A stretch of DNA of 64,000 nt from Amycolatopsis sacchari (GTDB taxonomy: Bacteria; Actinomycetota; Actinomycetes; Mycobacteriales; Pseudonocardiaceae). How positions within the stretch are numbered: position 1 is the first letter of the stretch; each line of letters begins with the position of its first letter. The stretch lies in contig NZ_FORP01000001.1 of the NCBI RefSeq assembly GCF_900114035.1, positions 558,001 through 622,000 on the forward strand. The letters are read 5' to 3'. Positions 6,827 to 55,700 of the stretch are shown here, in pieces. The notes under the pieces are model-generated. The model had not been told where the DNA came from. It saw nothing but the letters and a program-made list of their open reading frames with translations, and made no database searches. Position numbers and translations under genes: made by a program.

Positions 6827-7911
6827 ACCTGCCAGGCCAGCGCGTCCACCACGTCGGTGAGCTGCCGGCGGCGTGCGAAGGCGGCACGCTGCCGGTCGGC
6901 GCCGCCGCCCGTCTGCCGCAGGCGGTCCAGCACCTCCCGCACGAACTCCTCGTCCCCGGTCTGCCGCAGGTGCGGCCGGACCTGCTCGACGAGCCGGTCC
7001 ACCAGGTGCCACGCCGGCACGAGGTCCCCGTCCTCCGGGTCCACGGCCTTGCCGGACAGCCCGTCACGGGCGCCACGCCACAGCATCGTCCGCAGCAGTT
7101 CCGGCGGCGGCCCCGCCTTGCCGTCGGGCGCGTCCCCCTCGTCCATCGCCCGCGCCGCCAGCCCGCGCACGAGCACCGCCAGCAGGCCGGCCTCCTCGAC
7201 CGTCGCCGCCACGTCGGAGATGCGGACCTCCAGCGTCGGCTGGTGCTCGGACAGCCGGATGTCCCAGTACACCATCCCGCGGTCGAGCAACGCGCCCGTG
7301 CGCAGCATGGCGTCGACGAGCGACTCGTAGTGGTCCTCGGACTCGAAGTGCGGCGGCGGGCCCGACGACGGCCAGCGCCCCCACATCACGTGCCGCCAGC
7401 TGGCGTAGCCGGTGTCGTCGCCGTCGTGGAACGGCGAGTTGGCGGTCAGCGCGAGCAGCACGGGCAGCCACGGCCGGATCCGGTTGCTCACCGCGAGCCC
7501 GGTCACGCGGTCGGGGATCGCCACGTGCACGTGGCAGGCGCAGGTGAGGGCGGAGCGGGCGACGGCGCCGAACTCGCCCGCCATCCGCTGGTAGCGGGGG
7601 CTCGGGGTGAAGGCCAGGGTGCGGTCCTCGGCCAGCGGCGGCACCCCGGAGGGCAGCAGCCGCAGCTCGCGGGTGGCGGCCTCGGCCGCCAGGCCGTTCC
7701 GCAGCTCCCGCAGCCCGTGCGTGACCTCCTCGACCGTGGTCTGGACCTCCGTGGCGGACTCCACCTGGCACGTGCGCAGCTCGTGCTCGACCTGTCCCGG
7801 CGGGTCGGACACCTCGTCGGTGACGGCGGGGCCGTCGGAGGCCAGGTGGGCCTCGCGGTCCACCAGCAGGAACTCTTCTTCGACACCGAGGGTGAGGGTG
7901 TGGTCGCTCAT
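6823..7911 (-). CDS. YbdK-type carboxylate-amine ligase (glutamate-cysteine ligase 2 family)
   Basis: A 362-residue protein matching the GCS2/YbdK family in length and motifs: GVEEEFLLVD near the N-terminus, CACHVHV in the middle (metal/nucleotide-binding His residues), a SRIRPWLP-like NRIRPWLPVLLALTANSP stretch and EVRISDVAAT. Family members join a carboxylate, usually the gamma-carboxyl of glutamate, to an amine with ATP hydrolysis and have weak gamma-glutamylcysteine ligase activity. Actinomycetes carry several paralogs whose amine substrates are mostly unknown. ATG at 7911 was preferred over one six codons upstream because GVEEEF follows closely. No pathway partner is adjacent. Confidence 0.88.
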   Translation of the reverse strand: MSDHTLTLGVEEEFLLVDREAHLASDGPAVTDEVSDPPGQVEHELRTCQVESATEVQTTVEEVTHGLRELRNGLAAEAATRELRLLPSGVPPLAEDRTLAFTPSPRYQRMAGEFGAVARSALTCACHVHVAIPDRVTGLAVSNRIRPWLPVLLALTANSPFHDGDDTGYASWRHVMWGRWPSSGPPPHFESEDHYESLVDAMLRTGALLDRGMVYWDIRLSEHQPTLEVRISDVAATVEEAGLLAVLVRGLAARAMDEGDAPDGKAGPPPELLRTMLWRGARDGLSGKAVDPEDGDLVPAWHLVDRLVEQVRPHLRQTGDEEFVREVLDRLRQTGGGADRQRAAFARRRQLTDVVDALAWQV

Positions 7912-8385
7912 GGGCGCAGACGGGGCCAATCGGGAGTGGTCGGGAAAGGGCGGTCGCCGGGCTGCTGCTCAACACGGGACCGCGGTCATCGTATCGGCCA
8001 CCCGAGTGACCCGCAGGGCTTGAACGGCCCGCCCGGCCGTGTCCGTCACATGACGCACCGTGTTTTCCGGCACCCGGCCCAATGATCACCTCACCAGGTG
8101 GGGGGAGCGGGCGAATGTCCGGAGCGCACCCCGGATCCGCACGGGCAGTGACGGGCACGGCCGACCGCGCTCCGCCGGTGGTCATCCGATGGTGTGAGCG
8201 CCGGGAAACCGCTTTCTACTCAGGCGTGTCGTGGCCGTGGCAGCGGGTTCCCGCGGTCCTTGGCGGCTCCGCGACCGGCGGGTAGCTTCGCCGTCGCTCG
8301 CTCGCATCCGTTGGTGCAGCACACCGTGTCGGGGGACCGGTTCCGCGTCGTGAGCGTCCTTTTCCCTTTGCCGAAAGGATGATCC
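7912..8385. other. 474-bp intergenic region, divergent promoters
   Basis: This gap separates the divergent carboxylate-amine ligase and the exported choice-of-anchor P protein. I find no open frame with coding character, no tRNA and no convincing long hairpin. The last 20 bp before 8386 contain GAAAGGATG, an acceptable ribosome-binding site for the exported protein. The region presumably holds both promoters, but no -35/-10 pair is clear enough to place. Confidence 0.5.
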
Positions 8386-36342: not shown

Positions 36343-37422
36343 TCACTTCCCGCCACGGCGTTCGGCGAGGATCTGCGCCAGCGTGTGCACCGGCGAGCTG
36401 TCGAGCTTGTGGCGGTGCGCGTCGTAGTGGTCGCGGGTCGTGCGGATATCGGCGTGGCCCAGCAGGTCCTGCACCTTCTGCACCGGCACGTCGTGCGCGA
36501 GCAGCAGGGTGCCGGTGGTGCGGCGGGCGGTGTGCGGGCTGATGCTCGCCGCACCGGGGATGCCCGCCTCGGCGGCGAGCCGCCGCAGGGTCTGCCACAC
36601 GTCGCGCTGCCGCAACGGCTTGCCGCCGGGCTTGCTCCGGTCGTGCGGGTGCGGGGTCGTGGCCAGCAGCGGACCGGCCAGGTCGTCCAGGCCGCGGTGC
36701 TCGCGTTCGGCACGCAGTTCCAGGTACCGCCGCAGCGGGCGGAGCGCGGGCGCGACCAGGGGCACGAAGTCGCGGCGGCCGCCCTTGCCCGTGTAGCGCA
36801 GGATGGTGTGCCCGGCGTCGATCGCCAGGTCGGAGACCTGCGCGCCGGTGATCCCGGAGACGCGGAGCCCGGTGTAGAACAGCAGCGCGACCAGGGCCGC
36901 GTCGCGCCAGGACGCCTCGGAGCGGGCGCGGCGTTCGGCGTGGTCCAGCAGCGTTGCGGTCGCCTTCTCGTCGAGGGCCGGCAGGGGAGAGGTGCGGTCG
37001 CGTTTGGGGCGCCCCGCGGCCGCGACGGGGTTGCGTTCGGTGACGTCGTTGGACTGCAGGTAGCGGTACCAGCTCGACACGCCCGCCAGCGTCCGCGCCA
37101 CCGTCGACGGTGCGGCCGGGCGCGGAACACCGTCCCGGCCGGTGACGGTGAGCGTCGTCTTCCAGGCGTCCACGTCCGCCCGCCGGGCCTTCAGCGGATC
37201 GAGCCCCGTCCGCTGGCACCAGGACAGCCACGCTGCGAGGTCCGCGTAGTAGGCGCGTTGCGTGTGCTCGCTCTTGTCAGCCTTCAGCCACAGCACCGTC
37301 ACGTGACGAATCGCGTACCGATCCCCGGGGTCGGCGGGAGGCAGCGCGGGCAGCAGCGACACCGCCTCCGCGAGGTCCTCCAGATCGCCGCGTGAACCAC
37401 CCCAGGGCGCCAGCTCCGTCAT
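36343..37422 (-). CDS. tyrosine recombinase / site-specific integrase
   Basis: A 359-residue recombinase with a SAM-like core-binding domain (about 40-135) and a complete catalytic domain: Arg187 (TGLRVSG), Lys213 (TGKGG), His297 and Arg300 (HTARR), His323 (LLGHADIRTT) and the nucleophile Tyr333 (DHYDAH). It breaks and rejoins DNA through a 3'-phosphotyrosine. It resembles XerC/D-like and actinobacterial integrases rather than large phage integrases. There is no excisionase, relaxase or phage gene nearby, no tRNA, and no visible att repeat. It is divergent from a coiled-coil protein gene, 94 bp apart, with inverted repeats between. ATG at 37422 was chosen; a start five codons upstream is possible. 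Confidence 0.9.
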   Translation of the reverse strand: MTELAPWGGSRGDLEDLAEAVSLLPALPPADPGDRYAIRHVTVLWLKADKSEHTQRAYYADLAAWLSWCQRTGLDPLKARRADVDAWKTTLTVTGRDGVPRPAAPSTVARTLAGVSSWYRYLQSNDVTERNPVAAAGRPKRDRTSPLPALDEKATATLLDHAERRARSEASWRDAALVALLFYTGLRVSGITGAQVSDLAIDAGHTILRYTGKGGRRDFVPLVAPALRPLRRYLELRAEREHRGLDDLAGPLLATTPHPHDRSKPGGKPLRQRDVWQTLRRLAAEAGIPGAASISPHTARRTTGTLLLAHDVPVQKVQDLLGHADIRTTRDHYDAHRHKLDSSPVHTLAQILAERRGGK

Positions 37423-37426
37423 AACT

Positions 37427-37437
37427 GTGATTATCAC
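37427..37437. promoter_or_regulatory. palindrome abutting the recombinase start, candidate operator
   Basis: GTGATTATCAC is a perfect 11-bp dyad around a central T, four bases upstream of the recombinase ATG (read on the minus strand). Such a site would cover the ribosome-binding region or promoter of the recombinase gene. The function is inferred from position and symmetry. Confidence 0.4.
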
Positions 37438-38768: not shown

Positions 38769-39647
38769 CTAGCCGCCCAGCAGGTGGCGGGCACGGTCGA
38801 TCAGCACCCTCGCGGCCGGGCCCGGCGGTCCCGCCGCCCGCCAGGCGAAGACCAGCCGGCCCCGCAGCGGCGGGTCGACGACGGTGAGCGGGTGCAGTCC
38901 CGGCCAGGAGCGGGCCAGCGAGTCCGGCAGGATCGCCACGCCGAGGCCCCGCGTCGCGAACTGGGCCAGCATCGACGGATCGCTGGCCTCACACGCGATC
39001 CGTGGGGCGAAACCGGCACGGGCGCAGGCGGTGTCGAGGTGCGAGCGGATGCCGGTGCCCGGGGGCAGGCTGATCAACGGGCGGTCCCGCAGTGCGGCGA
39101 GCGGGATCTCCGACCGCGCCGCCAACGGGTCGTCCACCGCGACCGCGGCCGTGATCGCTTCGTCGGTCACCACGGCGTACACCAGGTCCGGCGGTGGCTC
39201 GGGCCCGAGCGACACGATCGCCGCGTCGAGGGTGCCGCGGCGCAGCGATTCGACCAGCTCTGCCGAGCCGGCCTCGGTGAGCGTCACCTCGACGCCCGGG
39301 TGGTCGCGGTGGAACGCGGCCAGCAATCCCGGCAGGTCGACGTTGTGCGACGTCACCATGCCCAGCGCGACGCGCCCGCGCAGCAGGCCGGCCAGCTCGT
39401 CGACCGCGTGCCGCGCCCCGTCGACCGCGGCGAGGGCCGCGCGGGCGTAGGGCAGGACCGCGGCCCCGGCCTCGGTGAGGCGCACCGCCCGGCCGGAGCG
39501 GTCCAGCAGCTCCTGGCCGAGTTCCCGCTCCAGCCGCCGGATCTGCGCACTCACGCCCGGCTGCGCGACGTGCAGCTTCTCCGCGGCGCGCGTGAAGTTG
39601 CGTTCCTCGGCGACGGTCACGAAGTACTCCAGCTGCCGCAGTTCCAC
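38769..39647 (-). CDS. LysR family transcriptional regulator
   Basis: A 292-residue LTTR. The HTH is at about residues 1-60 (ELRQLEYFVTVAEERNFTRAAEKLHVAQPGVSAQIRRLERELG), followed by two Rossmann-like effector subdomains (GMVTSHNVDLPGLLAAFHRDHPGVEVTLTEAG; LPPGTGIRSHLD). GTG at 39647 starts the conserved N-terminus. It is divergent from the alpha/beta hydrolase with 89 bp between, the usual LysR arrangement, so it probably controls that gene in response to its substrate or product. Part of this intergenic region and the HTH start recur, decayed, near 52.1 kb. The 217 bp downstream (38552-38768) hold no recognisable gene. Confidence 0.92.
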   Translation of the reverse strand: MELRQLEYFVTVAEERNFTRAAEKLHVAQPGVSAQIRRLERELGQELLDRSGRAVRLTEAGAAVLPYARAALAAVDGARHAVDELAGLLRGRVALGMVTSHNVDLPGLLAAFHRDHPGVEVTLTEAGSAELVESLRRGTLDAAIVSLGPEPPPDLVYAVVTDEAITAAVAVDDPLAARSEIPLAALRDRPLISLPPGTGIRSHLDTACARAGFAPRIACEASDPSMLAQFATRGLGVAILPDSLARSWPGLHPLTVVDPPLRGRLVFAWRAAGPPGPAARVLIDRARHLLGG

Positions 39648-42713: not shown

Positions 42714-43895
42714 TCAGCGCCGCACCGGGAAGAACCGGTCGGGCCCCGGCTCCACGTGCGGGACGTCGTTCATGTCCTGCCGCAACGCCGACAGCTCCCG
42801 GTAGATCTCCCGCCGCGCTCGGTTCTGGTTGCCCAGCGGCCGGTGCTCGGGCAGCGCGTGCCACGGGTTGATCGAAAGGCTGTCCGCGCGCGCCCGCTGC
42901 TCCGCCGGGTCCAGCTCCTGCACCGGCAGCCGCAGCACGCCCACCCGCACCGGCGGCGACACGCGCTCCGGCCAGATCACCGACGCGTGCTCGACCGGCA
43001 TCCGCAGCGGGTCGTTCTGCACCTGCACCAGCACGTCGAACTCCGCCTCCCGCGTGCTCAACGTCCGCGCCAGCGCCTGCGCGAGGTAGTCGTCCGGCGG
43101 GTTCCACGGCACCCGCGTCCGCCCCGCCGCGCGCGGCACGAACCGGTACTGCATCGCCTGCCCCGGCCCCAGCAGGTACGCCGCGCAGCTCCAGTAAGCG
43201 GTTTCCAGCGGGCTGGTGTGCGTCCGCGCGTACAGGCCCTGCATCACCAGGTCCGCCAGGTGGCTGTCGCGCGGGTCCAGGAAGTACCACAGGGGAGTGC
43301 CGTTCCCGATGTGCCGCTGCAGCTTGACGTTCGCCACCACGTCGGGCGTGGTGAACGTCGGCGCGCTGATCCCGGTGAAGTCCTGCGTGTGCCGCTCGTC
43401 GTCCAGCAGCTTCGGCCCCGGCACGCCGACGACCTTCACCCCGATGCTCAGAATCCCGTTGTCCTCCAGGTCCGGCGGCGACAACGGCCCCGGCCCGGCG
43501 AACCGCACCCACGCCGCGTACGTCGCCGGCCGCGCGAACAACCCGTGCCGCACCGGGAACGGCAGGTCGTCCAGGACCTCCAGCGACGCCCGCACCACCC
43601 CGTAGGTCTTGGTGTTGCCCGCCCGCTGCGCCTGCCCCGGCGCGTACTCGCGCAGCACGAACCGGCTCATCAGCTTCACGATCTCCGCGCGCGCCGCGTC
43701 CTCACCGGGGATCGACAGCTCCTCGGCCCTCACCCCGGACACCGGCAACGTCCACCGCCGCACCAGCGCCTGCACGAGGCCCTGCACCGGCGGGCGCACC
43801 ACCGCGTCGAACGCGGGCCGCACGTACGGGTCGATCCGCCGTTCCAGCGCGACCAGCCGCGACACCGCGTCGTTGACCTGCTTCCGGAGGTTCAC
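42714..43895 (-). CDS. catalase-family heme protein
   Basis: A 393-residue protein of the short catalase-like superfamily. PVRHGLFARPATYAAWVRFAG occupies the distal-His position of catalases, ILSIGVKVVGVPG and FLDPRDSHL follow, and SPLETAYWSCAAYLLGPGQAMQYRFVP is the catalase-like core strand region. It lacks the full KatA-type dimer wrapping and C-terminal flavodoxin domain. Catalase-related proteins of this size include allene oxide synthase-type enzymes acting on lipid hydroperoxides as well as true peroxidases. It is the last gene of a four-gene unit with DyP and heme dioxygenase genes; GTG at 43895 overlaps the DyP stop by 4 bp. Confidence 0.78.
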   Translation of the reverse strand: MNLRKQVNDAVSRLVALERRIDPYVRPAFDAVVRPPVQGLVQALVRRWTLPVSGVRAEELSIPGEDAARAEIVKLMSRFVLREYAPGQAQRAGNTKTYGVVRASLEVLDDLPFPVRHGLFARPATYAAWVRFAGPGPLSPPDLEDNGILSIGVKVVGVPGPKLLDDERHTQDFTGISAPTFTTPDVVANVKLQRHIGNGTPLWYFLDPRDSHLADLVMQGLYARTHTSPLETAYWSCAAYLLGPGQAMQYRFVPRAAGRTRVPWNPPDDYLAQALARTLSTREAEFDVLVQVQNDPLRMPVEHASVIWPERVSPPVRVGVLRLPVQELDPAEQRARADSLSINPWHALPEHRPLGNQNRARREIYRELSALRQDMNDVPHVEPGPDRFFPVRR

Positions 43896-45244
43896 GCCAT
43901 CACCGTCGCGAGGTAGCGCAGCGCCGCGATCCCCGGCAGGAAGAAGTACGCCCCGCCCCGCACCCGCACGAACTCCGGCAGGGCGCGGTGCCGCACCCGC
44001 ACGGGGCGGGCCTGCTCGGTGAACACCGCGCCCTCCCGGACCCGCGGCGCCACCACCGGGTCCGGGTCGTCCCGCAGGCCGTTGAACGTGGGGTCGTTGA
44101 GCCAGCTGTGCTGCACGAACTCGTACTGCCGCGCCAGGTTCGCGTTGAGGCACAGGAAGTACAGCCCGCGCTCGGTGTCACCGCCGCGCTGCCGCCTGGT
44201 GTAGCTGCGGCCGCGGCGCAGCAACCGGTGCCGGTCGTTGATCGTCATCGACTCCGCCGAACCCGGCCGCGGCGGCAGCGAGTCCCGGGGGTTGGCCCGC
44301 CGCACGTGCGCCCCGAGCGGACACGCCAGTCCATCGGGATCCGTTTCGTGGTAACGGAAATCGTGCCCGGCCAGCTCCGGGTCGTCCCGCTCGGGGGAGA
44401 GCACCACCGGCGCGCCGCTCGGCCACCGGCCCATCATCTTCGCCGCGAGCCGCCGCGCCCCCTCGGCCCCGTCGCCGCCGTGCTCACGCACGTACGACCA
44501 GAACCCGTCGACGTCCTGCGACAGCTGCCGCAGCACCAGGTAACTGCCGTTGCGGCCCAGGTCCGCTCCGCCCGACCCGGCCTCGTCCCGCGGCAGCAGG
44601 TTGTTCGGATCCACGCTCGCGGGCAGCACGGGACGCTCGGTGAACCGGCCGTAGGCGTTGCGGTACCCGAGCACGAACTCTCCCGGCGCGATCCCGCCGT
44701 CACCGCCCACCACCCCGGCCAGCCGCGGCTGGGACAGCCCGTCGCGGAACCCGAACGGTTCACGCCCGGTCAGCGGATCCGTCGGCAGCACCGCCAGCCG
44801 GGACAGCCCGCCCGCCCCGCGCTCCAGCGCGTTCACCCGCCGCCGCAACGCATCCGCCGTCGCGGCGTACACCAGCACGAGCACGTGCACCTCCGCGCCG
44901 CCCGGCCCGCCCCACGACCACCGCCGCGGGTCAGCGTCGCCGACGTCCCCGAGCAGCCGCGACCGGTGCTCGGTCGTCATGCCCTCCGCGAACGCGGGGG
45001 AGAACGACGCGACGATGGAGGCGGGCACCGCCAGCGCCCGCAGGCCGGCCGCCGTCAGCGCGACGTTGACCGCCGACTCGGGGGAGACCACCGCCCCGCT
45101 CGTCACCTGCCCCGCCCACCGGCCCAGCGCGTTCCGCGCGGTCTCCGCGTCCGCCACGCCGTAGAGCAGGAACGCCGCGTGCCTCAGCCGCCCGTAGCCC
45201 CGGACCACCAGGCCCTGCACGTCGTCGAGATCGAGGGTGTCCAT
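43892..45244 (-). CDS. DyP-type peroxidase
   Basis: A 450-residue dye-decolorizing-type heme peroxidase. The signature GxxDG occurs at residues 165-169 (GFRDGLSQP; Asp168 is the distal acid), and the proximal heme ligand is His313 in CPLGAHVRRANPRD, with the paired Arg315/316. It has no Tat signal, so it is cytoplasmic or delivered otherwise. It is longer than typical B-type DyPs (about 315 residues) and closer in length to D/C-type. It is preceded by the 562-residue gene (6 bp gap) and overlaps the catalase-like gene, so it belongs to one operon with the dioxygenase-like enzyme. Confidence 0.88.
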   Translation of the reverse strand: MDTLDLDDVQGLVVRGYGRLRHAAFLLYGVADAETARNALGRWAGQVTSGAVVSPESAVNVALTAAGLRALAVPASIVASFSPAFAEGMTTEHRSRLLGDVGDADPRRWSWGGPGGAEVHVLVLVYAATADALRRRVNALERGAGGLSRLAVLPTDPLTGREPFGFRDGLSQPRLAGVVGGDGGIAPGEFVLGYRNAYGRFTERPVLPASVDPNNLLPRDEAGSGGADLGRNGSYLVLRQLSQDVDGFWSYVREHGGDGAEGARRLAAKMMGRWPSGAPVVLSPERDDPELAGHDFRYHETDPDGLACPLGAHVRRANPRDSLPPRPGSAESMTINDRHRLLRRGRSYTRRQRGGDTERGLYFLCLNANLARQYEFVQHSWLNDPTFNGLRDDPDPVVAPRVREGAVFTEQARPVRVRHRALPEFVRVRGGAYFFLPGIAALRYLATVMA

Positions 45245-45250
45245 ACCGCC

Positions 45251-46939
45251 TCACAGCAACGCGAGCCACGACCGCGCCTCGGCGGCGCCGAGGTCGCGGG
45301 ACAGGCCCTCGCGGATCTTGGAGTTGTCGTCGATGTTGCGCGCGGACAGGTCCCGGTACGCCGAGTACCACACGCTCGGCAGCTGGTGCGCCCGCAGGTA
45401 GTCCTTGAACGCCTGCTCGTCGCGCGCCCCGCCGCCCACGAGCCAGCGCGTCGCGGGGTAGCCGACGCCGTTGGAGAACACCGCGTTGAGCCCCGGGGCG
45501 AGCTTGTCGATGAACTCATCCATGTAGCTTTCCAGGCTGCCGTCGTAGTTGCTGGCGAACACCAGCCGCCGCCCGCGGTCGACGTAGACCCAGCGCGCGA
45601 AGTGGATCGTCCGCACACCCGCCAGCCCGCCCCGCGCGTACACGTGCCGGTTGAAGTAGTCCAGTCCGAACAGGACGGTCCGCAACGTGACCGCCCTGAC
45701 CAGCCCCGGCTTCACCGTCCCCGCCGCCGTGAACGGGTTCTGCGTGGACAGGTCCTCCTGCTGCGTCAGCTCCGCCAGCCGCTCCGGCGACACCCGGCCG
45801 ATCTCCGGCGTGTCACGCGCTTCCAGCCGCCGGATCAGCAGCGCCCACACCGGCAGCGCGGGCAGCAGCAACGGCACGGCCGCGGGCACGACCACCCGGT
45901 GCACCGCCTCGCGCGCCCGGAACGCCGCCGACGGCGCCTCCGGCGGGCGCAACGCCCACGACAGTTCCGGCCGCCCCGCCACGAAGGCGCGCACGGCGCG
46001 GTGCACCTCCCGCTCGTCCGCACCCGACCAGTCACCCTCGTCGAGGAAGTCCTCGATCCGCTCCCGCAGCCGCGCTTCGTCCTGGATCCGGGCAAGGCTC
46101 CGCCCCACGTGGTGCACGTACGCCGACGCCGCCGGGATGCGCCGCTGCGCCAGCCAGCGCACCCGGTCCTGCACACTGCCGTTGTCCGGGTGGTCCTCGC
46201 ACATCGCCAGCAACGACGGCAGCGAATCGTTGGGCGCCGACGCCAGATCCCGCAGGTGCGCCCCGACCGGAGTGTCCACTTCGGCCAGGTACATCAGCGT
46301 CGGCGGCCCGTTGTCCTCCGCGGGCAACAGGAACACGCGCGCGAAGTGCACCCCCGCGAGCTCCCGGAACGGGCCACCGTCGAGTTCCACGCTCTTGCGC
46401 AACTGCTCCAGCAGTCCCGGCACCTCCGCCTCGCGACCGCGCCGCAGCCGCGCCCGGATCGTCAGCGCCACCTGGTGCGGGGCCGGTCCGGCCGACGCGG
46501 TGGGCGGGCGCCGCAGCACGAACCACGCCACCCGGCGCCGCCACAGCCACACCACGCCCAGGTACAGCCCCGGCGCGACGAGCCGGATCTCGTCCCGCAC
46601 CCCGCGTGCCACCAGCGACGACTCCGAATAGTCGATGACCGTGCAGTCGCGGCCGTCCAGCCAGCTCCGGCCGGGCGCCACGGTCGCCCGGATCGCCCGC
46701 AGCCCCAGCGGGCCGACCCGGTTGTTCAGCCACTGCCCGCTGCCGTCGAACACCTTGCCGCGCCACGCCAGCGCCCGCGCCAGCGTCGCGACGGGCTTCG
46801 CCAGTCCCGTGCCGGCGCCGATCACGGCCGTGCCGTCCATCGCGCCCAGCGGCACCTCGCCGGGCGGGCTGGCGCGGAACAACCGGATCAGCTCGTCGTC
46901 CGCGGCCGACAGCAGCCCCTGCTCGTCGACGACCTTCAT
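45251..46939 (-). CDS. uncharacterised 562-residue protein of the heme-peroxidase cluster
   Basis: I cannot name this family. Residues 25-145 form a module with AWRGKVFDGSG, SWLDGRDCTVIDYSESS and RDEIRLVAPGLYLGVVWL, which looks like a small beta-barrel. The middle part (150-250) has ferredoxin-like character. A hydrophobic segment at about 345-370 (VVVPAAVPLLLPALPVWALLI) could be membrane associated. The C-terminal module carries WVYVDRGRRLVFASNYDGSLESY (Tyr465 region), resembling the ferredoxin-like halves of DyP-type proteins, without a recognisable heme ligand. ATG at 46939 overlaps the heme peroxidase stop (ATGA). The strict coupling suggests a partner or product-processing role in the cluster. 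Confidence 0.7.
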   Translation of the reverse strand: MKVVDEQGLLSAADDELIRLFRASPPGEVPLGAMDGTAVIGAGTGLAKPVATLARALAWRGKVFDGSGQWLNNRVGPLGLRAIRATVAPGRSWLDGRDCTVIDYSESSLVARGVRDEIRLVAPGLYLGVVWLWRRRVAWFVLRRPPTASAGPAPHQVALTIRARLRRGREAEVPGLLEQLRKSVELDGGPFRELAGVHFARVFLLPAEDNGPPTLMYLAEVDTPVGAHLRDLASAPNDSLPSLLAMCEDHPDNGSVQDRVRWLAQRRIPAASAYVHHVGRSLARIQDEARLRERIEDFLDEGDWSGADEREVHRAVRAFVAGRPELSWALRPPEAPSAAFRAREAVHRVVVPAAVPLLLPALPVWALLIRRLEARDTPEIGRVSPERLAELTQQEDLSTQNPFTAAGTVKPGLVRAVTLRTVLFGLDYFNRHVYARGGLAGVRTIHFARWVYVDRGRRLVFASNYDGSLESYMDEFIDKLAPGLNAVFSNGVGYPATRWLVGGGARDEQAFKDYLRAHQLPSVWYSAYRDLSARNIDDNSKIREGLSRDLGAAEARSWLALL

Positions 46940-48756
46940 GACCGCACCGGCCACGCCGCGAACGCGTTGTCCACCTCGGCCACGGCGGGCCGCAGACCGG
47001 GGTAGTGCCGCAGCAGCACGCTCAGCATCGAGTTGTCCCGGATCCAGTCCAGCCCGGTCTGCGAGTACACGGCCGGCGTGTAGTACTCGGTGAAGAACCG
47101 GTCGCTGTTCAGCCGCCGCGAGGCCATCAGGATGAACACGCGGAAAGCGGTGTCGCTGAAGGCGAACCCCGCCGGCTTGCGCTCGGCGAACATGCCTACC
47201 GTCAGGTCGACGTCCTCGATCCGCCCGCCGTAGCAGCGGCTGATCTCCTCCGCCCACTGCCGGTTCCCGGTCAGCTCGTCGAAGTCCCGCGCGGGCCGCA
47301 GGTGCAGCAGCCGCCGGAACTCGTTGTACCGCGGCACACCCAGCTCACGCGAGCGCAGCACGTCCGTCGCCGCCAGGTCCTGCAGGTGCCCGTCCGGGCG
47401 GTGGAACTCCTGCAGGTGCCGCGGGAAGTTGTGCAACGTCACCAGCCCCGGCGGCAGCGTCCCGAACGAGTACAGCAGGTCGGTCAGCGACACGCTGTTG
47501 AGCACCTTCAACGCGTTCTCCCCGGCCAGGTCGGGGAAATCGCACTCCAGCACCGTCTGGTCGTCGGCCACCGAGCGGAAGTCCCAGTGGTCCCGCAGCA
47601 GCGGGTGCATCCGGTACACCGCGACGAACTCCTCGGTGAGCGAGAACGGCACGCCGTAGTCGTCGGTCGAGCCACCCGGGATCCCGCTGACCACCTCGCT
47701 GTCGCTGATGCGCCCGAACAGCCGCTGCACCCGTTCACCGGCCAGCCCGAACCAGTTGGCCCGCAAGGCCGCCTTCGTCGTCGGGTGACTGATCACCGCG
47801 GGCGTCCACTCCACGGTGTGGATCTTGGCCAGCAACGCCGAGTTCACCAGCCGCGCCCGCTGGAACAGCTCCTCGTCCGGCCACGACGGGTAGTCGGCGT
47901 GCAGCCGGTCGCAGATCGCGTTGTGCTCCAGCGTGAACAACGTCCGCAACAGCTCGGGACCGAGCCAGAACCCGGGCACCAGCGCCGGGTTGTCGGCCGG
48001 GTCGTCCGGCAGCGGCAACAGCCCGCTGTCGAGCACTCGCAGCTTCCCGCCCTCACCGCTGCGCAGCCACTGCTGCTGCCGCCGGTCGACGCCGTAGATC
48101 TGCGAACCATCCCACCAGTGCGTCAGCACGTTCACCCTGGTCTGCGGCTGGTCCGCGCCCGCGGGCCGCGTCGGGTCGTCAGGGGTGCGCATGATCCGCA
48201 TCGGCCGCTCGGGCCACGGGTCGTCGGCGGCCAGCGGCACCTCCCACGGGTTGTCCTTGGGGCTCTTGCCGTGGCTGAACCAGTCGCGGATCATGAACTG
48301 CAACCACGCCGCGACCAGCGAGTTCACCGACGAGGCCGGCACGAACGTGGTCCGGGTCAGCAGCGCACGGCTGATCTCCCGCGGGTTCGGCGACAGCACC
48401 GAGGTCTCCGTCGCCGCCGCGATCCGGTCCAGCGGGATGTTGCGCCCGAACCGCGTGCCCGCCATGCCCGTGGCCGGGCGGTCCAGGTCGTTGTGGCTGC
48501 CGTCCGCCGTGCGCCCGGTGAGGTAGTCACGCGAGAACGCAGGCGCCTCGGGCGGGTCCACGGCGGGCAGGTGCCCGGTGTCGTACAGGTTGTCCTGCCG
48601 CAGTTTTGTCCGCAGCCCGATCAGCTCGAGCAACCCCAGCGGCACCGGCAGCCGGTCCCACCCGACCACCTGGTCCACCAGCCCGGTCACGGCCGTGAAC
48701 AACCGCCACGGCAACGCCCTGCGATAACTCCGGTCAGCGGGTTCGGAATTGTTCAT
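46936..48756 (-). CDS. alpha-dioxygenase/cyclooxygenase-like heme peroxidase
   Basis: A 606-residue animal-type heme peroxidase of the fatty-acid dioxygenase branch. EEFVAVYRMHPLLRDH at 375-390 aligns with the COX/alpha-DOX active site: Tyr381 is the radical tyrosine position and His384 the proximal heme ligand. HTVEWTP (His313, Thr318), WWDGSQIYG and GVPRYNEFRRLL are the blocks shared with plant alpha-dioxygenases. The distal segment reads FMIRDWFSHG, with Arg where plant enzymes have FMIHDW, though His162 is close by. The expected reaction is oxygenation of a fatty acid to a hydroperoxide. It is the first gene of the four-gene operon; ATG at 48756, divergent from the P450. Confidence 0.88.
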   Translation of the reverse strand: MNNSEPADRSYRRALPWRLFTAVTGLVDQVVGWDRLPVPLGLLELIGLRTKLRQDNLYDTGHLPAVDPPEAPAFSRDYLTGRTADGSHNDLDRPATGMAGTRFGRNIPLDRIAAATETSVLSPNPREISRALLTRTTFVPASSVNSLVAAWLQFMIRDWFSHGKSPKDNPWEVPLAADDPWPERPMRIMRTPDDPTRPAGADQPQTRVNVLTHWWDGSQIYGVDRRQQQWLRSGEGGKLRVLDSGLLPLPDDPADNPALVPGFWLGPELLRTLFTLEHNAICDRLHADYPSWPDEELFQRARLVNSALLAKIHTVEWTPAVISHPTTKAALRANWFGLAGERVQRLFGRISDSEVVSGIPGGSTDDYGVPFSLTEEFVAVYRMHPLLRDHWDFRSVADDQTVLECDFPDLAGENALKVLNSVSLTDLLYSFGTLPPGLVTLHNFPRHLQEFHRPDGHLQDLAATDVLRSRELGVPRYNEFRRLLHLRPARDFDELTGNRQWAEEISRCYGGRIEDVDLTVGMFAERKPAGFAFSDTAFRVFILMASRRLNSDRFFTEYYTPAVYSQTGLDWIRDNSMLSVLLRHYPGLRPAVAEVDNAFAAWPVRS

Positions 48757-49015
48757 GGAAATTCCCCTCCGAGTGTTTTCCGCGCTCGACCACGCTCGTC
48801 CGCGAACAAATCACCGGCCGCAACCCGGGCGCGCGGAAGAACCAGACTCGCACCGGATCTCGCTGCCTGTCCAGGATCGTGACCCGAATACCCAAGTGGA
48901 GCAAAGCCCCGTCGAGACAGCGAATTCCAGCAGGACCTGGCGGCGGTCCGGCCACCGCGTTACTTTGGGGAGCGCATTTCCCCCGCGGTTCCGGAAAATG
49001 GATCAGGAGATTCCG
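48757..49015. promoter_or_regulatory. divergent promoter region of the heme-peroxidase operon and P450
   Basis: A 259-bp gap between the divergent dioxygenase-like and P450 genes. It contains no gene or convincing dyad. AGGAGA at about 49003 serves the P450 ATG. Shared control of both transcripts is likely by arrangement. Confidence 0.4.
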
Positions 49016-50255
49016 ATGGCCGGCACCCCACGATTTCCCCGCGCACGCCCGCTCGACGATCTCGCCGTCACCGCCACCGTGCTCGCGCCCAACCTCGTGC
49101 AGGGGCTGTTCCACCGCTGGCGGGTACCCGTCCGGCTCGCCACACTGGCCGACGTCGACCGCGCCGCGGTGCGCGTGCTCTCCACGCTCTCGCGCCGCTA
49201 CGACGGCGGCCCCGTGCGGGTGCGGGGCGGGCTCCTGCTGCTCGACCCCGCCGACACACACCGGGTGCTGAACGGGCCGGTCGAGGACTACGCGGCCGAC
49301 ACCCCGGCGAAACGCCGCGGCATGAGCCACTTCCAGCCCACCGCCCTGACCATCTCCCGCGGTCACCTGTGGCGTGACCGCCGCACCTTCACCGAAACGG
49401 TGCTCGGGCGGTTACCCCGCCTGGCCGGGCACTTCACCGCCTGCGCCGAGCAGGAGACGAAGGACCTCGTCGCCGCGGGACCCGTGCTGGACTGGCGTTC
49501 CTGGCACCGCACCGTGCAGCGCATCGCCCGGCGGATCCTGTTCGGGGACACCGCCGCGGACGACCAGGAGCTCAGCGAAACCCTGGAACGCATGATGAGC
49601 CGCGCGAACCTCCTGCCGGGACGGCCGTCGCGAACTCGCGGGCTTCCACGAGCGCGTGGGGGAGCACGTCCGCCACGCCGGGCGGGACAGCCTCGCGGGC
49701 TGGTTCACCGACACCCCGTCCACCGGCTGGACGGACCCGACCGGCCAGCTCACCCACTGGCTGTTCGCCCTCGGCGACACCCTCGCCATCAACACCCTGC
49801 GCACCCTCGCCGTCGTCGCGCAGCGGCCGGCCGACCGGAGCCGCGCGCTCGCCGACGACCGCTACCGCACCGCGTGCCTGCTCGAAACCATGCGCCTGTG
49901 GCCGACAACCACCCTGCTGGCGAGGGAAACCCGCCGCGAGATCCGCTGGCCCGGCGGCGGGCTCGTCCCCGCGGGCACCCAGGTGCTCATCGCCAGTACG
50001 TACCAGCACCGCGATCCCGACGGGCTGGAACACCCCGACACCTTCGCCCCGGACGCGGCGGGGTCGCCGCCGTTCGTGCACTTCGGCGGCGGGCGGCAGA
50101 TCTGCCCCGGGATCTCGCTGGCCGAGCTGACCGGCACCGCGATCCTGCGCGTGGCGCTGGAACACACCCTGGCGGTGACCGCGCCGCGGCTGCCCGAGGA
50201 CGAGCCGTTGCCGCACATGCTGGACTTCTTCGGCATCCGCGTCGCGGTCGCCTGA
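49016..50255 (+). pseudogene. cytochrome P450 interrupted by a frameshift
   Basis: ATG at 49016 (AGGAGA upstream) opens a P450 N-terminal half (FPRARPLDDLAVTATVLAPNLVQGLFHRW ... SRGHLWRDRRTFTETVLGRLPRLAGHF, the C-helix with WxxxR). Coding shifts by +1 near 49620-49640: the original frame becomes Arg-rich nonsense while the next frame carries RRELAGFHERV, the K-helix ETMRLWP and the heme loop FGGGRQICPG (Cys codon 50103-50105) to the TGA at 50255. Joined, the protein would be about 412 residues, a full bacterial P450. The I-helix (FALGDTLAIN) lacks the usual AGxxT pair. A real loss of function or a sequencing error are both possible. Likely partner of the divergent dioxygenase. Confidence 0.82.
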
Positions 50256-50256
50256 C

Positions 50257-51807
50257 TCAGCTGTCCCGGCTCACCGTCAGCGTCACCGTGCCGCGGTTGG
50301 TGCCGTAGCGGCCCCACGCGTCGTTGGCGAACGCGTAGCAGTACCCGGGGCTGCGCACCTCGCACCCGGCGCCTGCGCCGATCGCGATCCGCTGGTGCTC
50401 GCGCCCGTTCGGGGCGCCGGGGCAGGGGTGGGCGTCGTTCGCCACGTACCCCACCAGCGACATCCACGGCAGGTCCACCTCGCGCGGCGCCAGCGGCGCG
50501 TACGCGACGTCCTGTCCCGGGAGGCGCCGGTACCACCGCAGGCCCAGCGCCAGCACGCTGCCCACCACGTGCCGCAGCAGACCGGCGACAGCCCGGCCCT
50601 CAGGACCCGACCAGCCCGTGCCGTCGTACCACTGGCCGGAGGCCGAGAAGCGGTAGTGCCCGGGTTCGAGGTACAGCCCGGTGTCGTGCCACAGTTCGTG
50701 GGCCGCCACGCCGACGGTCGCGCTTTCCCCGGGGGCGAGCACCTGCGTCGGCCGGTACCGCCCGCCCGTGATGGGTTGCGCGCGCCGCCGCTCGACAGCG
50801 GAGGGATCGATCTCGGCGACCTCGGCCGTCACGCGCGGCACGGCCCGCGGCCGGTACTGCAACGCGGCCTCCAGTATGGGCTGCATCAGCGGCTCGACCA
50901 CGGTGGGCAGGACCCCGAACACCCCGCGGTCGTCGTTGTGCAGCAGTCCCGCCGGGTCGGGGGACAGCGCCTGCACGCTCGCGCGGTGGAAGCCGAGCCC
51001 GGCGTGCTTCTCCGCCTCGCCGATCATCCACTGCAGGCCGCGGTCGCTCAGCGCGGTCTCACGGTGCCCGCCGCCGACGTCCATGTGGCTGCCGGGGAAC
51101 CAGCGTTCCTCGATGTCCTGGCCGGGTTCCGGGGCCACCCAACGGGTCGGGGTGAACGGACGGCGACGCTCGTCGAGGGCGAGTGCGTGCCGCCCGTGTT
51201 TGATGCGCGGGTTCAGCTTCATGTCGTGGAACCGGTAGCGATCGGGCGGGTCGAGCAGGTTGAGCCCGGTGAAGTAGCCGGGGACGCCGAGCGAGCCGAC
51301 GGTGTCCCACACCCCGAGGAAGTCGATGGGGAACTCGCCACCGGAGCGGGGGTCGTAGCGGAACGCCAGCCCTTCGCGCCACTCCGGGGAGTCGTCACGG
51401 GCGCGGTAGTGGCGGTACGCCCGGGCGACGAGCTTCCCGGCCTCCGCCGGGGGCCGTTCCCGCAGGTCCACCAGCCCCGAGGCGCCGACGAACCCGGCGA
51501 GACTGCGGACGGTGTAGGCGCCCCGGCTGAAACCGACCAAGGCGACGGCGTCGCCAGGGGAGTAGGTGGTGGCGAGCCACTGGTAGGCGGCCATCACGTC
51601 GTCGGACAGCCCGCTGCCCAGCGCGCCGCCGAGCATGCGGCGCAGCACCCCGCCGGTGGTGCCGACGCCGGGCTGGTAGCAGGCGAGCTGGCGCCGCCCG
51701 GAACTGTCCTGATCGGACAGTGCATTGTAGAACCGGCGGACGTTGGTCACGGACTCCACGTCGGGGTCGCACCAGGTGCCGTCGCAGCAGATGATCAGTC
51801 GTCGCAC
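50257..51807 (-). CDS. DUF2235 (Tle1-like) alpha/beta hydrolase with C-terminal extension
   Basis: A 516-residue protein. The N-terminal 300 residues are DUF2235: RLIICCDGTWCDP at the start, the nucleophile elbow GFSRGAYTVRSLAGFVG (Ser94), FLGVWDTVGSLGVPG, and WFPGSHMDVGGGH with the likely catalytic Asp/His. Relatives include Tle1-type phospholipases. The last 180 residues, with HDTGLYLEPGHYRFSASGQWYDG and a YCYAFANDAWGRYGTNRG end, look like an added beta-rich binding domain. GTG at 51807 follows AAGGGG; longer starts to 51870 exist. There are no type VI secretion genes, so this is a housekeeping or cluster lipase. It converges on the P450 with 1 bp between stops. Confidence 0.85.
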   Translation of the reverse strand: MRRLIICCDGTWCDPDVESVTNVRRFYNALSDQDSSGRRQLACYQPGVGTTGGVLRRMLGGALGSGLSDDVMAAYQWLATTYSPGDAVALVGFSRGAYTVRSLAGFVGASGLVDLRERPPAEAGKLVARAYRHYRARDDSPEWREGLAFRYDPRSGGEFPIDFLGVWDTVGSLGVPGYFTGLNLLDPPDRYRFHDMKLNPRIKHGRHALALDERRRPFTPTRWVAPEPGQDIEERWFPGSHMDVGGGHRETALSDRGLQWMIGEAEKHAGLGFHRASVQALSPDPAGLLHNDDRGVFGVLPTVVEPLMQPILEAALQYRPRAVPRVTAEVAEIDPSAVERRRAQPITGGRYRPTQVLAPGESATVGVAAHELWHDTGLYLEPGHYRFSASGQWYDGTGWSGPEGRAVAGLLRHVVGSVLALGLRWYRRLPGQDVAYAPLAPREVDLPWMSLVGYVANDAHPCPGAPNGREHQRIAIGAGAGCEVRSPGYCYAFANDAWGRYGTNRGTVTLTVSRDS

Positions 51808-52018
51808 GGGAAACCACCCCTTCCTCGTGCCCATCAGAGCACAGCGGGGCACGCGTGGATACGAGGTCACCGGTTCGGCCCACAGGGGCGTTGGTGGAGG
51901 CTGGTGGGCCGGCGAGCGTGACGGGGTGGAATGCAGAGTCTCGTAGTAGCGGCGGAGCCGGGGATTGTTGCGCGCCGTGGCCAGTCGTATCTAGCGGCGG
52001 CCACGCTGGGCGGCCTTG

Positions 52019-52721: not shown

Positions 52722-55700
52722 TTGAGCAACCCGCTGGTCGCACAGGAACAAAGCTCCACCAAGGCGTACTCCGGAGTGTCGCTGCTGGAGACCGCCTTCG
52801 ACCTGGACAGTGCGATCAAGAGCGGGGACTGGGCCGCCGTCGCGCTCGGCGCGGTCGGCACCGCGCTCGACGCCCTCTCCATGGCCATGGACCCCTTCGG
52901 CGCGATCCTCGCCGCCGGGGTGGGCTGGCTGATGGAGCACGTCGGCCCGCTCAAGGAAGCGCTCGACGCGCTCGCCGGCAACCCCGACCGCATCAACGCC
53001 CACTCCGAGACGTGGGGCAACATCTCCAAGGAACTCGGCGAGATCAGCCAGGACCTCACCAGCCTGGTCGAGGCCGACCTCCAGGGGTGGACCGGTCCCG
53101 CCGCCGACACCTACCGCGCACTCGCCGCCGACACCGGCAACCTGCTGACCGCGGCCCAGAAGGGCGCCGACGGCGCTTCCTCGGGCATCAAGACCGCGGG
53201 CGAGGTCGTCGCCGCCGTGCGGTCACTGGTGCGCGACATCATCGCGGAACTGATCGGGCACCTGATCAGCTGGGCGCTGCAGGTGCTGTTCACCCTCGGC
53301 ATCGCCTCGGCGTGGGTCGTGCCGCAGGTGATCGCCGAGGTCGCCAAGGTGGCGTCCAAGATCGCGGACCTGACCAAGCGGCTGGTCAAGGCGCTCAAGG
53401 CGCTGGGCGACCTGCTCAAGCAGGCCGGCAAGCTGTTCGGCGACGCCGGCAAGGCCTTCCGCAACCTCAAGGCCGGTGGCAGGTCCACCGCGGGCAAGCC
53501 GAGCGACCTCGGCGGCGCCACGAAGAGCGGCCCGAAGGACAACGGCTCCACCACGCCGTCGTCGACCCCGAACACCGACCCCGGCGGCAACACGAGCCCG
53601 TCGTCCACCTCCCACGACGGCGCCGGCAACGGCACACCCCACGGCGACCCGGGGCCGGCCCCGAGGTCCGATCCCGGCAGCGACACCACGGGGTCCGGTG
53701 GCACGGGCGGCGGGGCCAGGGGCGGTGACGGCACCACCACGTCGTCCGCGACGAAGGGCGGCCAGGACGACGGCTCCCGCATCGCGAACAACAACTCGAA
53801 TCCCGACGAGCACACGACGCCGAGCGTCAACCGCTGCCTCAACGGTGACCCGATCGACGTCGCCACCGGCGCGGTGCTGCTGGAACAGCAGGACGTCTCG
53901 CTGCCCGGCGCGCTGCCGCTCGTCGTCGCCCGCACGCACCTGTCCTCCTACCGCGCGGGCCGCCACTTCGGCCCCACCTGGGCGTCCACCCTGGACGAAC
54001 GGATCGAGGTCGAGGACGACGGGCTGCACCTGGCGCTCGCCGACGGCACCCTGCTGCGGTACCCCGTCCCGCGCGGGATGGAGCCGGTGCTGCCCGAACG
54101 CGGCCCCTACCTGGCCCTGCGCCGCGTGCGGCACGGCTTCATCGTGGGCGACCCGCAGTCCGACCGGATGCGCTACTTCGCCGCCGCTCCCGGGCAGCCG
54201 ACGCTGCCGCTGCGCGCCGTCGTGGACGGCGCCGGCAACCGGATGGTGCTGCGGTACCGCGCCGGAGTGCCCGCGGCCATCGAGCACTCCGGCGGCTACC
54301 GCATCGAGATCGACACCGCCGACGGCCTCGTGACCGCCCTGCGCACCCCGGACTCGCCCGTTCCGCTGGCCGAGTACCGCTACGACTCCGCCCGCAGGCT
54401 CGTGGAGGTCACCGACGCGGCCGGCACCCCCCTGAAGTTCAGCTACGACGCCGACGGCAGGCTCCTCCGCTGGGAGGACGTCAACGGCCGCTGGTACCGC
54501 TACGGCTACGACTCCCAGGGCCGCTGCGTGCGCGCCCAGGGCACCGACGGCTACCTCGACACGGAACTGGCCTACGACTCCGAAAACCGCGTCACCACCG
54601 TCACCGACTCACTCGGCCACGTCACCCGCTACCGGCTGGACGAACGGCTGCGCGTCATCGGGCGGACCGATCCGCTCGGCCACAGCATCAGCATCGACCT
54701 CGACCGCTTCGGCCGCGTGCTCGCCGAAACCGACGAACTCGGCCACGTCACGCGCTGGGAGTACGACGAGGTCGGCAACCTCGTGTCGGTCACCCGGCCG
54801 GACGGCAGCCGCATGGTCGTCGAATACGACGCTCGCCGCCGGCCCACCGCGGTGACCGGGCCGGACGGCGCCGTGTGGCGCTACGAGTACGACGCGCGCG
54901 GCAGCCTCGTCCGCAGCGTCGATCCCACCGGGGCGGCCACCTCCTACACCTACGACCCGCACACCGGCACCATCGACTCGGTGACCGACGCGCTCGGCGG
55001 CGTCACGAGGGTCCAGGCCAACGCCGCCGGCCTCCCGGTGGCCATCACGACCCCCGACGGCGCGGTCACCCGCTACGGCTACGACGCGCTGGGCAACACC
55101 GCGAGCATCACCGATCCGCTCGGCGGCACCACCACGATGGTCCGCGACGCCGCGGGCAACCTCGTGCAGGCCCGCGACGCCGACGGCGTGGTCGAGCGCT
55201 TCACCACCACCGCGCGCGGCAACGCCGAGGAACGGACGGACGCGCGCGGCGGGGTCAGCCGCGTCGAGTTCGCCCAGTTCGACCTGCCCGTCACCGAGAA
55301 GCGGCCCGACGGCAGCACCCTGAAGTACGGCTACGACACCGAACTGCGGCTCACCTCGGTCACGAACGAACGCGGCCTGGTGTGGCGCTACGAGTACGAC
55401 GCCGTGGGCCGCATGGTGGGGGAGACCGACTACAACGGCCGGGTCCTCCGCTACGAGTACGACGCCGTGGGCAGGCTCGTGCGCCGCACCAACGGCGCCG
55501 GGCAGACGATCACACTGGAGCGCGACAGCCTCGGGCGCGTCGTCCGGCGCAGCAGCGCGGACGAGGTCGCCGAGTTCGCCTACGACGCCGCCGACCGCAT
55601 GGTGGTGGCCCGCAACGAGCACAGCGAAGTCCGGTTCACCTACGACGCGCTCGGCCGCGTGCTGTCGGAGTCGATCAACGGGCGCGTCGTGTACTCCCGC

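What the first reader, a model, noticed from the sequence alone, without database searches (positions are those of the whole stretch)
42714..50255. Candidate actinobacterial oxylipin-type cluster: fatty-acid dioxygenase, catalase-like, DyP, P450
Four overlapping minus-strand genes encode an alpha-DOX/COX-like heme enzyme with Tyr381 and His384 conserved, an unknown protein, a DyP peroxidase and a catalase-family protein, divergent from a P450. Oxylipin routes elsewhere pair a heme dioxygenase with a P450 (fungal Ppo fusion enzymes; plant alpha-DOX and CYP74) or with a catalase-related allene oxide synthase (corals). Here all three enzyme types share one locus as separate genes. Translational coupling argues for a shared pathway, perhaps making oxidised lipid signals. 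I do not know of a described bacterial system with this set, but could not search.
Basis: partly seen in the sequence, partly recalled or inferred. Interest (0 to 1): 0.78.

Follow-up and report, generated by a model that had tools for sequence, protein, structure and literature searches.

The report
Bacterial fatty-acid oxidation gene module
A soil bacterium carries a conserved set of genes built around an enzyme resembling plant fatty-acid alpha-dioxygenases, with partner haem proteins whose active sites have been altered; the set recurs in distant bacteria, so it is probably a real but uncharacterised lipid-oxidation pathway.

Summary
The genes are real: an alpha-dioxygenase-type haem protein (DOX), a 562-aa protein in no Pfam family (UNK), a DyP peroxidase and a catalase-fold protein (CAT), with a divergent P450 that is frameshifted here but intact in three congeners. 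Of 394 class genomes, 8 of 11 with strong UNK carry DOX (28 of 394 overall). CAT-DOX fusions and DOX-P450 neighbours occur elsewhere. New here: the distal haem His of alpha-DOX is Arg (R/K in 65 of 95 relatives) while catalytic Tyr, proximal His and carboxylate anchors are kept in 95 of 95; module CATs have Asn for catalase's distal His yet keep the haem Tyr. Models make UNK a lipocalin-like barrel fused to a tandem ABM-like domain with a hydrophobic helix. Best reading: membrane-associated fatty-acid C2-oxygenation with dedicated 2-hydroperoxide processing. Activity, substrate and signalling are unshown. A cyanobacterial dioxygenase with a catalase-related lyase is a known precedent.

The parts
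46936..48756 (-). DOX: alpha-dioxygenase-family haem protein, 606 aa; Tyr381, proximal His384, carboxylate-anchor residues kept; distal His replaced by Arg157
45251..46939 (-). UNK: 562 aa; about 1-150 lipocalin/FABP-like barrel (UNKn), about 150-562 tandem ABM-like ferredoxin-type domain with a hydrophobic helix near 338-374 (UNKc); separate genes in several relatives
43892..45244 (-). DyP-type peroxidase, 450 aa, with Asp168, His313 and Arg340 in conserved motifs
42714..43895 (-). CAT: catalase-fold protein, 393 aa, haem Tyr365 and Arg361 kept; distal His replaced by Asn94 and catalase Asn148 position by Ser177
48998..50255 (+). Cytochrome P450, divergent from DOX, frame shift near 49.62-49.65 kb in this genome; intact (417-418 aa) in three congeners
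48757..48997 (.). 241-base divergent intergenic region between DOX and P450, presumably holding the promoters; partly conserved in congeners
50257..51870 (-). Tle1-like alpha/beta hydrolase (PF09994, 252 bits), GFSRG nucleophile elbow, convergent with P450; same place in three congeners

Best explanation
The locus is a fatty-acid C2-oxygenation module at the membrane. Inferred steps: (1) the Tle1-like lipase frees fatty acids; (2) the barrel domain of UNK, whose fold is that of fatty-acid and retinoid carriers, binds the acid or its product, and UNK's hydrophobic helix holds the assembly at the membrane; (3) DOX, through the Tyr381 radical, removes a C2 hydrogen and adds O2 to give a 2-hydroperoxy acid, with Arg157 standing in for the distal His in activating the haem; (4) the catalase-fold partner, which keeps the haem Tyr but has lost the residues for H2O2 breakdown, rearranges or cleaves the 2-hydroperoxide instead of letting it decarboxylate, as catalase-related AOS and HPL do with other hydroperoxides; (5) DyP takes up peroxide or oxidises an intermediate, and in some Amycolatopsis a P450 decorates the product. 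Shown by computation: gene order, co-occurrence, fusions, residue conservation, predicted folds. Inferred: every chemical step.
For: DOX is closest to alpha-DOX (365 bits). In 95 of 95 DOX sequences compared (a best-hits sample, not a census) the catalytic Tyr, proximal His, H311, T316, F375 and R559 equivalents are kept. The block TLE-P450-DOX-UNK-DyP-CAT is complete in 3 of 3 sampled congeners that have a DOX (7 other sampled congeners have none); the window's RHS and PrmC-like neighbours were not found around it there. UNKc and DyP lie near DOX at 24 of 95 loci, 22 without same-genome duplicates (duplicates from contig lengths). UNKc is followed by DyP on the same strand in 26 of 26 loci holding both (24 without duplicates); CAT follows DyP directly in 15 of these 26 (for the UNKc of L109). 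In 394 class genomes, 8 of 11 strong-UNK genomes have DOX against 28 of 394 overall (Fisher p 3e-8, not corrected for kinship). CAT-DOX fusions: Calothrix L144 and L172-L175. P450 next to DOX in L165, L167, L168 and L022. Tle1-like matches near DOX also in L089 and L121. CAT: Asn at the distal position in 19 of 19 rows that have UNK, DyP and DOX; His in 2 of 2 rows of a DOX-less set. Folds: CAT Z 22.6 to coral AOS-LOX, 3.5 A over 304 residues, and 21.1 to the M. avium catalase-related protein; UNKn Z 15.1 to Tcur_1030 with FABP and lipocalin rows at 6-8; UNKc Z 13.4 to WhiE-ORFI.
Against: No activity data exist. DOX lacks the distal His described as an essential haem ligand of alpha-DOX (PMC9305512, passages), so it may not oxygenate fatty acids by the usual route. 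Most DOX genes do without the module: it was not found near DOX at 71 of the 92 loci of the tree (some contigs are short), 20 of the 28 DOX genomes in the class sample have no strong UNK, and of 17 DOX genomes chosen for lacking it 0 have a strong UNKc elsewhere. One complete genome (G515) has UNKn without DOX. Asn-type CATs also occur beside DOX where no UNK was found (L129; L164), and two CATs near DOX keep both catalase residues (L082, L133). DOX position varies, and 6 of 26 UNKc-DyP loci show no CAT in the sequence held (L057, L058, L059, L061, L096, L116). This genome's P450 is broken or mis-assembled. CAT model confidence is moderate (pLDDT 76) and under 50 at residues 92-95, the Asn94 loop.
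Confidence: 0.55

Rival explanations
1. A lipid-peroxide detoxification or redox-defence set: DyP, the catalase-fold protein and DOX remove or sense peroxides and lipid radicals, without a specific product.
For: Three peroxide-related haem folds together; DyP Asp and His of the GxxDG and AHxRRxNP motifs present in 27 of 27 rows aligned; a shorter UNKc-like/DyP/CAT set without DOX exists in L067 and L068, with His and Asn of catalase retained; two CATs near DOX also retain both (L082, L133).
Against: In the DOX-linked module both catalase residues are replaced in 19 of 19 CAT rows, the opposite of what peroxide scavenging needs. DOX keeps its fatty-acid carboxylate anchors in 95 of 95. CAT-DOX fusions suggest product hand-over.
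Confidence: 0.17
2. Biosynthesis of a small specialised metabolite in which DOX acts on an acyl or polyketide substrate and the ABM/WhiE-ORFI-like domain of UNK, DyP and P450 tailor it.
For: UNKc's closest solved folds are WhiE-ORFI and the polyketide decarboxylase Abx(+)O; P450 and GMC oxidoreductase neighbours occur; distribution is patchy.
Against: None of the genes that I examined beside the block or picked from the neighbour clustering is a polyketide or peptide synthase; not every neighbour was annotated. The set is the same in Streptomyces and in Chloroflexota MAGs.
Confidence: 0.15
3. DOX with distal Arg is catalytically dead and is kept as a fatty-acid-binding or regulatory subunit of the DyP/CAT complex.
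For: Distal His lost; literature calls the two His ligands essential (PMC9305512, passages).
Against: The catalytic Tyr is useless in a dead enzyme yet is kept in 95 of 95; the distal residue changes at least 5 times on the tree between His and Arg/Lys (quick method), as expected of interchangeable residues. Precedent: Nostoc 10S-DOX differs from COX at this site and a fungal 8R-DOX H203Q mutant was only reduced in activity (PMC13049297, passages).
Confidence: 0.1
4. Chance neighbourhood of unrelated oxidative genes.
For: Gene order around DOX varies and many DOX genes stand without the module.
Against: Conservation over genera and phyla, 4-base overlaps, fusions and co-occurrence.
Confidence: 0.03

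Closest known systems
Plant and cyanobacterial fatty-acid alpha-dioxygenases (rice 4kvj/4hhr; CalDOX, LepDOX, CsDOX)
   Same: Full-length homology (36% identity to rice); Tyr, proximal His, H311, T316, F375 and R559 equivalents kept
   Different: Distal His157 is Arg; encoded in an operon with UNK, DyP and CAT; [quoted passage not shown]
Nostoc punctiforme linoleate 10S-dioxygenase plus catalase-related hydroperoxide lyase (described in PMC13049297, passages)
   Same: Bacterial haem dioxygenase of the peroxidase-COX superfamily working with a separate catalase-related enzyme
   Different: [quoted passage not shown] no DyP or UNK partner is mentioned in the passages read; direct sequence comparison not made
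Coral AOS-8R-lipoxygenase fusion (3dy5, 1u5u)
   Same: Catalase-fold hydroperoxide-transforming domain joined to the hydroperoxide-making enzyme; CAT model Z 22.6 and 22.4; the CAT-DOX fusions found here have the same layout
   Different: Partner is alpha-DOX-type rather than lipoxygenase; module CAT lacks the distal His
Fungal DOX-CYP fusions (LDS/AOS/EAS)
   Same: Haem dioxygenase with P450 partner
   Different: Separate divergent genes; the P450 has an I-helix GDT (acid-alcohol) motif of ordinary monooxygenases (recalled motif), and the congener's best solved match is weak (CYP175A1, 38.7 bits)
M. avium 33-kDa catalase-related protein (3e4y)
   Same: Catalase fold, small, bacterial; CAT model Z 21.1
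   Different: Sequence identity 18-20%; its neighbours were not examined

Membership tests
Fatty-acid alpha-dioxygenase | Homology closer to alpha-DOX than to COX or peroxidases | tested here: met
   365 bits to rice alpha-DOX; next lactoperoxidase 79, COX about 60
Fatty-acid alpha-dioxygenase | Catalytic Tyr and proximal His | tested here: met
   Y381 and H384; kept in 95 of 95
Fatty-acid alpha-dioxygenase | Carboxylate anchors and alpha-carbon positioning residue (rice H311, R559, T316) | tested here: met
   residue roles from PMC8720084 (passages)
Fatty-acid alpha-dioxygenase | Distal haem His (rice H157) | tested here: not met
   Arg in the window; R 60, K 5, N 1, H 29 of 95. PMC8720084 (passages) says it is only partially conserved in the family, so I call this an alpha-DOX-family protein of unproven activity, not an alpha-DOX
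Fatty-acid alpha-dioxygenase | 2-hydroperoxide or Cn-1 aldehyde formation | not testable with these tools
   Needs assay
Haem catalase (PF00199) | Catalase fold | tested here: met
   AF2 model pTM 0.81, catalase rows with Z about 20-21
Haem catalase (PF00199) | Proximal R-x-x-x-Y | tested here: met
   R361/Y365
Haem catalase (PF00199) | Distal His and Asn148 (catalase numbering, recalled) | tested here: not met
   Asn94 and Ser177; both sites replaced in 19 of 19 DOX-linked module rows
Haem catalase (PF00199) | Pfam match | tested here: not met
   PF00199 in 0 of 14 Asn-type CATs up to E 10
Catalase-related AOS/HPL | Turns a fatty-acid hydroperoxide into allene oxide or aldehyde | not testable with these tools
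   Fold similarity only
DyP-type peroxidase | GxxDG Asp, proximal His, distal Arg | tested here: met
   D168, H313 and R340 are among the columns conserved in at least 93% of 27 rows; TIGR01413 above cut-off; which Arg is distal is recalled
Cytochrome P450 | Intact gene with Cys-ligand loop | tested here: inconclusive
   FGGGRQICPG present and PF00067 matched, but the reading frame is split; one frame in three congeners
Nostoc 10S-DOX/catalase-related HPL pair | DOX orthologous to 10S-DOX | not tested
   Its sequence was not at hand; only passages describing it were read (PMC13049297)

The most novel reading that the evidence does not exclude
A bacterial alpha-oxidation pathway run by a membrane-bound multi-haem complex in which the dioxygenase has given up the distal His used to generate its own tyrosyl radical and depends on a partner (DyP), or on distal Arg/Lys chemistry of its own, for activation, while a catalase-fold protein that has shed catalase chemistry converts the unstable 2-hydroperoxide into a defined product; the lipocalin-ABM protein hands the lipid between them.
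Probability: 0.25. Interest if true: 0.78.

Novelty: new variant of a known kind. Interest (0 to 1): 0.6.

Why it matters
The review whose passages I read (PMC9305512) names three cyanobacterial enzymes as the first prokaryotic alpha-DOXs. Here is a recurring gene set that would give actinobacteria and Chloroflexota a dedicated C2-oxidation route. It makes two open questions testable: what the peroxidase-COX superfamily needs at the distal haem position (a natural His/Arg/Lys series with the other active-site residues constant), and what a catalase fold does after losing both distal residues. It also suggests a function for two protein families that Pfam does not recognise (UNKn, UNKc), and the CAT-DOX fusions could serve as biocatalysts for controlled processing of 2-hydroperoxides.

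Tried and rejected
Pfam and NCBIfam gave no family for UNK or module CAT; PDB sequence searches with single proteins or profiles gave nothing or rows that I judge to be chance, including a profile match of UNK to aldo-keto reductase (E 0.001), set aside because the model shows another fold. The idea that the distal Arg of DOX is tied to the module was rejected: Arg/Lys also stands at 43 of the 71 DOX loci without UNKc+DyP, and L122 and L128 have the module with His. The idea that module-less genomes keep UNKc elsewhere was rejected in 17 genomes. Catalase function for CAT was rejected on residues. A CYP74-like P450 was not supported (GDT motif, recalled). My first gene-boundary script chose wrong frames for some genes, and one CAT query contained part of a fused DOX; both were corrected, but CAT labels of L082 and L144 and of L023, L082 and L144 came from that query; L082 does have a separate CAT at 6556-7596, and L023 and L144 are fusions. 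still shows a wrong UNKc frame for L109; the right one (6744-8006) is. Literature searches of the open library that listed no description of this set; subscription papers are largely missing from it. Searches, on 2-hydroxy lipids of Amycolatopsis and on actinomycete clusters, led nowhere.
Full report
What is there. The window lies in a 7.59-Mb actinobacterial genome. A genome of the same genus in the sample (G146) has a contig of the same length, 231,559 bases, as one of Amycolatopsis tucumanensis strain ABO, so the window is very probably Amycolatopsis. On the minus strand run DOX 46936-48756, UNK 45251-46939, DyP 43892-45244 and CAT 42714-43895. DOX/UNK and DyP/CAT overlap by four bases; UNK/DyP is separated by six. 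A P450 starts at 48998 on the plus strand, 241 bases from the DOX start; its frame shifts near 49.62-49.65 kb.

Is the block more than chance? In 200 genomes of the family (the window's own included), 10 have a DOX match at E 1e-20 or better; three of the ten besides the window's own are of the same genus, while seven other sampled congeners have none. All three have the whole block TLE-P450-DOX-UNK-DyP-CAT, with a P450 of 417-418 aa in one frame. The window's neighbouring RHS gene and PrmC-like gene were not found in the stretches fetched around these blocks, so the block, lipase included, is conserved as a unit in a different setting. In 394 genomes of the class, 26 match UNK at 1e-5; a gap in E-values separates 11 strong matches (2.5e-37 or better; three of them UNKn only) from 15 weak ones (6.9e-13 or worse). 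DOX is in 28 of the 394. Eight of the 11 strong-UNK genomes have DOX (Fisher p 3e-8, or 3e-7 without the window genome; the cut was mine and kinship is not corrected), against 1 of the 15 weak ones (G342). The three exceptions are G283 and G297 (91% complete) and G515 (complete, UNKn only). The other 20 DOX genomes have no strong UNK. DOX and UNK are not always side by side: in G245, G263 and G278 they lie on different contigs.

Together with 15 other DOX sequences this gives 95, among them three same-genome pairs (L015/L069, L018/L114, L055/L094; contig lengths). In 26 of 26 loci with clear UNKc and DyP, DyP follows UNKc on the same strand, and in 15 CAT follows directly; in 5 CAT lies elsewhere in the locus and in 6 it was not found in the sequence held; DOX may be upstream, downstream or divergent, and is not in the stretch for 4 of the 26 (L059, L061, L067, L068) (for the UNKc of L109). 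On a quick DOX tree of 93 rows the module label needs 11 changes (at least 7 forced by starred branches) against 19 for shuffled labels: it has been gained or lost repeatedly but is not scattered at random. At 71 of 92 loci it was not found. Of 17 DOX genomes picked for lacking it, none has a strong UNKc elsewhere; one (G595) has a stand-alone UNKn, and one (L070) has UNKn near DOX.

Links between the parts in other arrangements. CAT-like and DOX are one protein in Calothrix sp. NIES-4105 (964 aa; PF00199 3.7e-9 and PF03098 4.5e-115) and in four further genomes (L172-L175, 953-979 aa); L023 looks like a sixth, interrupted by a stop. In mycobacteria and Nocardia a CAT-like gene often adjoins DOX. 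A P450 related to the window's lies directly beside DOX in L022, L165, L167 and L168. Tle1-like matches lie within about 5 kb of DOX in L089 and L121. UNKn alone is the immediate neighbour of DOX in L086 and L098. Other recurrent neighbours, found in clustering the surroundings of 92 DOX loci, are a small protein at 31 loci (of two members scanned, one has a PF14087/DUF4267 match, below cut-off) and a GMC oxidoreductase at 15 (two members scanned, both confirmed); tblastn with one member of the small-protein group found nothing in the window.

The active sites. DOX matches rice alpha-DOX at 365 bits, COX at about 60. Rice residues Y379, H382, H311, T316, F375 and R559 (roles from passages of PMC8720084) are conserved in 95 of 95; the distal His157 is R in 60, K in 5, N in 1, H in 29. 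On the tree His versus Arg/Lys needs at least five changes. PMC8720084 notes in one sentence that the distal His is partially conserved in the family; PMC9305512 calls both His ligands essential (passages). Among other DOXs the site is also variable, and a fungal H203Q mutant was only reduced (PMC13049297, passages). I therefore read Arg as a working substitute, not proof of death; that is inference.

CAT. Across 36 aligned rows the proximal Tyr is kept in 36. The 19 rows that have UNK, DyP and DOX (17 without duplicates) have Asn in place of the distal His and S (16), T (2) or C (1) in place of catalase Asn148. Asn-type CATs also lie beside DOX in L129 and L164, where no UNK was found. The two rows of a DOX-less set (L067, L068) keep His and Asn, as do L082 and L133, which lie near DOX together with a GMC oxidoreductase. 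Eleven mycobacterial and nocardial rows keep His, have T at the second site and K instead of R before the Tyr; L023 has His and D. The five fusions keep His with S, G or N at the second site. So the module's CATs have a distinct pocket. The model (pLDDT 76, pTM 0.81) has the catalase fold: coral AOS first (Z 22.6, 3.5 A over 304 residues), then catalases and the M. avium catalase-related protein at nearly the same Z; the loop with Asn94 is poorly predicted, so the His-to-Asn assignment rests on sequence alignment.

UNK. The model (pLDDT 80, pTM 0.70) has a barrel at 1-146 (Z 15.1 to Tcur_1030, 2.3 A over 133 residues, with lipocalin, FABP and retinoid-carrier rows at Z 6-8, a level that may mean only a common arrangement) and, at 153-529, a tandem ferredoxin-type domain (Z 13.4 to WhiE-ORFI, 4.0 A over 224 residues; 10.5 to Abx(+)O). 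A hydrophobic stretch reaches a 19-residue hydropathy of 2.1 here and 2 or more in 21 of 22 relatives, the exception (L104) having masked sequence there. The two domains are separate genes in several relatives.

How it most likely works. See Best explanation. Shown by computation: gene content, conservation, residues, predicted folds. Inferred: fatty-acid supply by the lipase, carrier role of the barrel, C2 oxygenation, processing of the 2-hydroperoxide by CAT, the role of DyP, P450 tailoring. Alpha-DOX reactions end in Cn-1 aldehydes (PMC9305512, passages); a dedicated partner that captures the hydroperoxide explains the fusions better than scavenging does.

Known and new. A bacterial dioxygenase with a separate catalase-related lyase is known from Nostoc punctiforme (PMC13049297, passages; the original paper is recalled, not read). 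Catalase-fold/lipoxygenase fusions are known. Not seen in the listings of my searches of the open library: an alpha-DOX/UNK/DyP/CAT operon, CAT-alpha-DOX fusions, or the distal Asn in this CAT group. I rate it a new variant of a known kind.

Noticed in passing
window 52722-58013 (+): RHS/YD-repeat protein with a sub-threshold WXG100 hit near its N-terminus and a VirD5-like hit at residues 1409-1566, next to the Tle1-like hydrolase: looks like a polymorphic-toxin-type gene; not found around the block in congeners.
   Followed up: partly
window 48998-50255 (+): P450 reading frame is split by a frame shift while three congeners have one frame.
   Followed up: partly
window 36343-37437 (-) and 38769-39647 (-): Tyrosine recombinase (PF00589) and a LysR-type regulator near the block.
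   Followed up: no
G000:C31:186739-187314 (L002, L024): Second An_peroxidase match in the same genome (62.6 bits), with no DOX match by tblastn.
   Followed up: no
L076:7636-9959, L082:6556-9967, L133:6587-9995: In a number of loci, mostly Streptomyces, a DOX without the module is preceded by a small conserved protein (weakly DUF4267-like) and a GMC oxidoreductase, sometimes with a CAT that keeps His and Asn: a second kind of alpha-DOX neighbourhood.
   Followed up: partly
L067:9348-12593, L068:6694-10090: A shorter UNKc-like/DyP/CAT set without DOX in the stretch, with canonical catalase residues: possible ancestor of the module.
   Followed up: no
L144:8915-11806; L172-L175: Catalase-like/alpha-DOX fusion genes in Calothrix and four other genomes.
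   Followed up: partly
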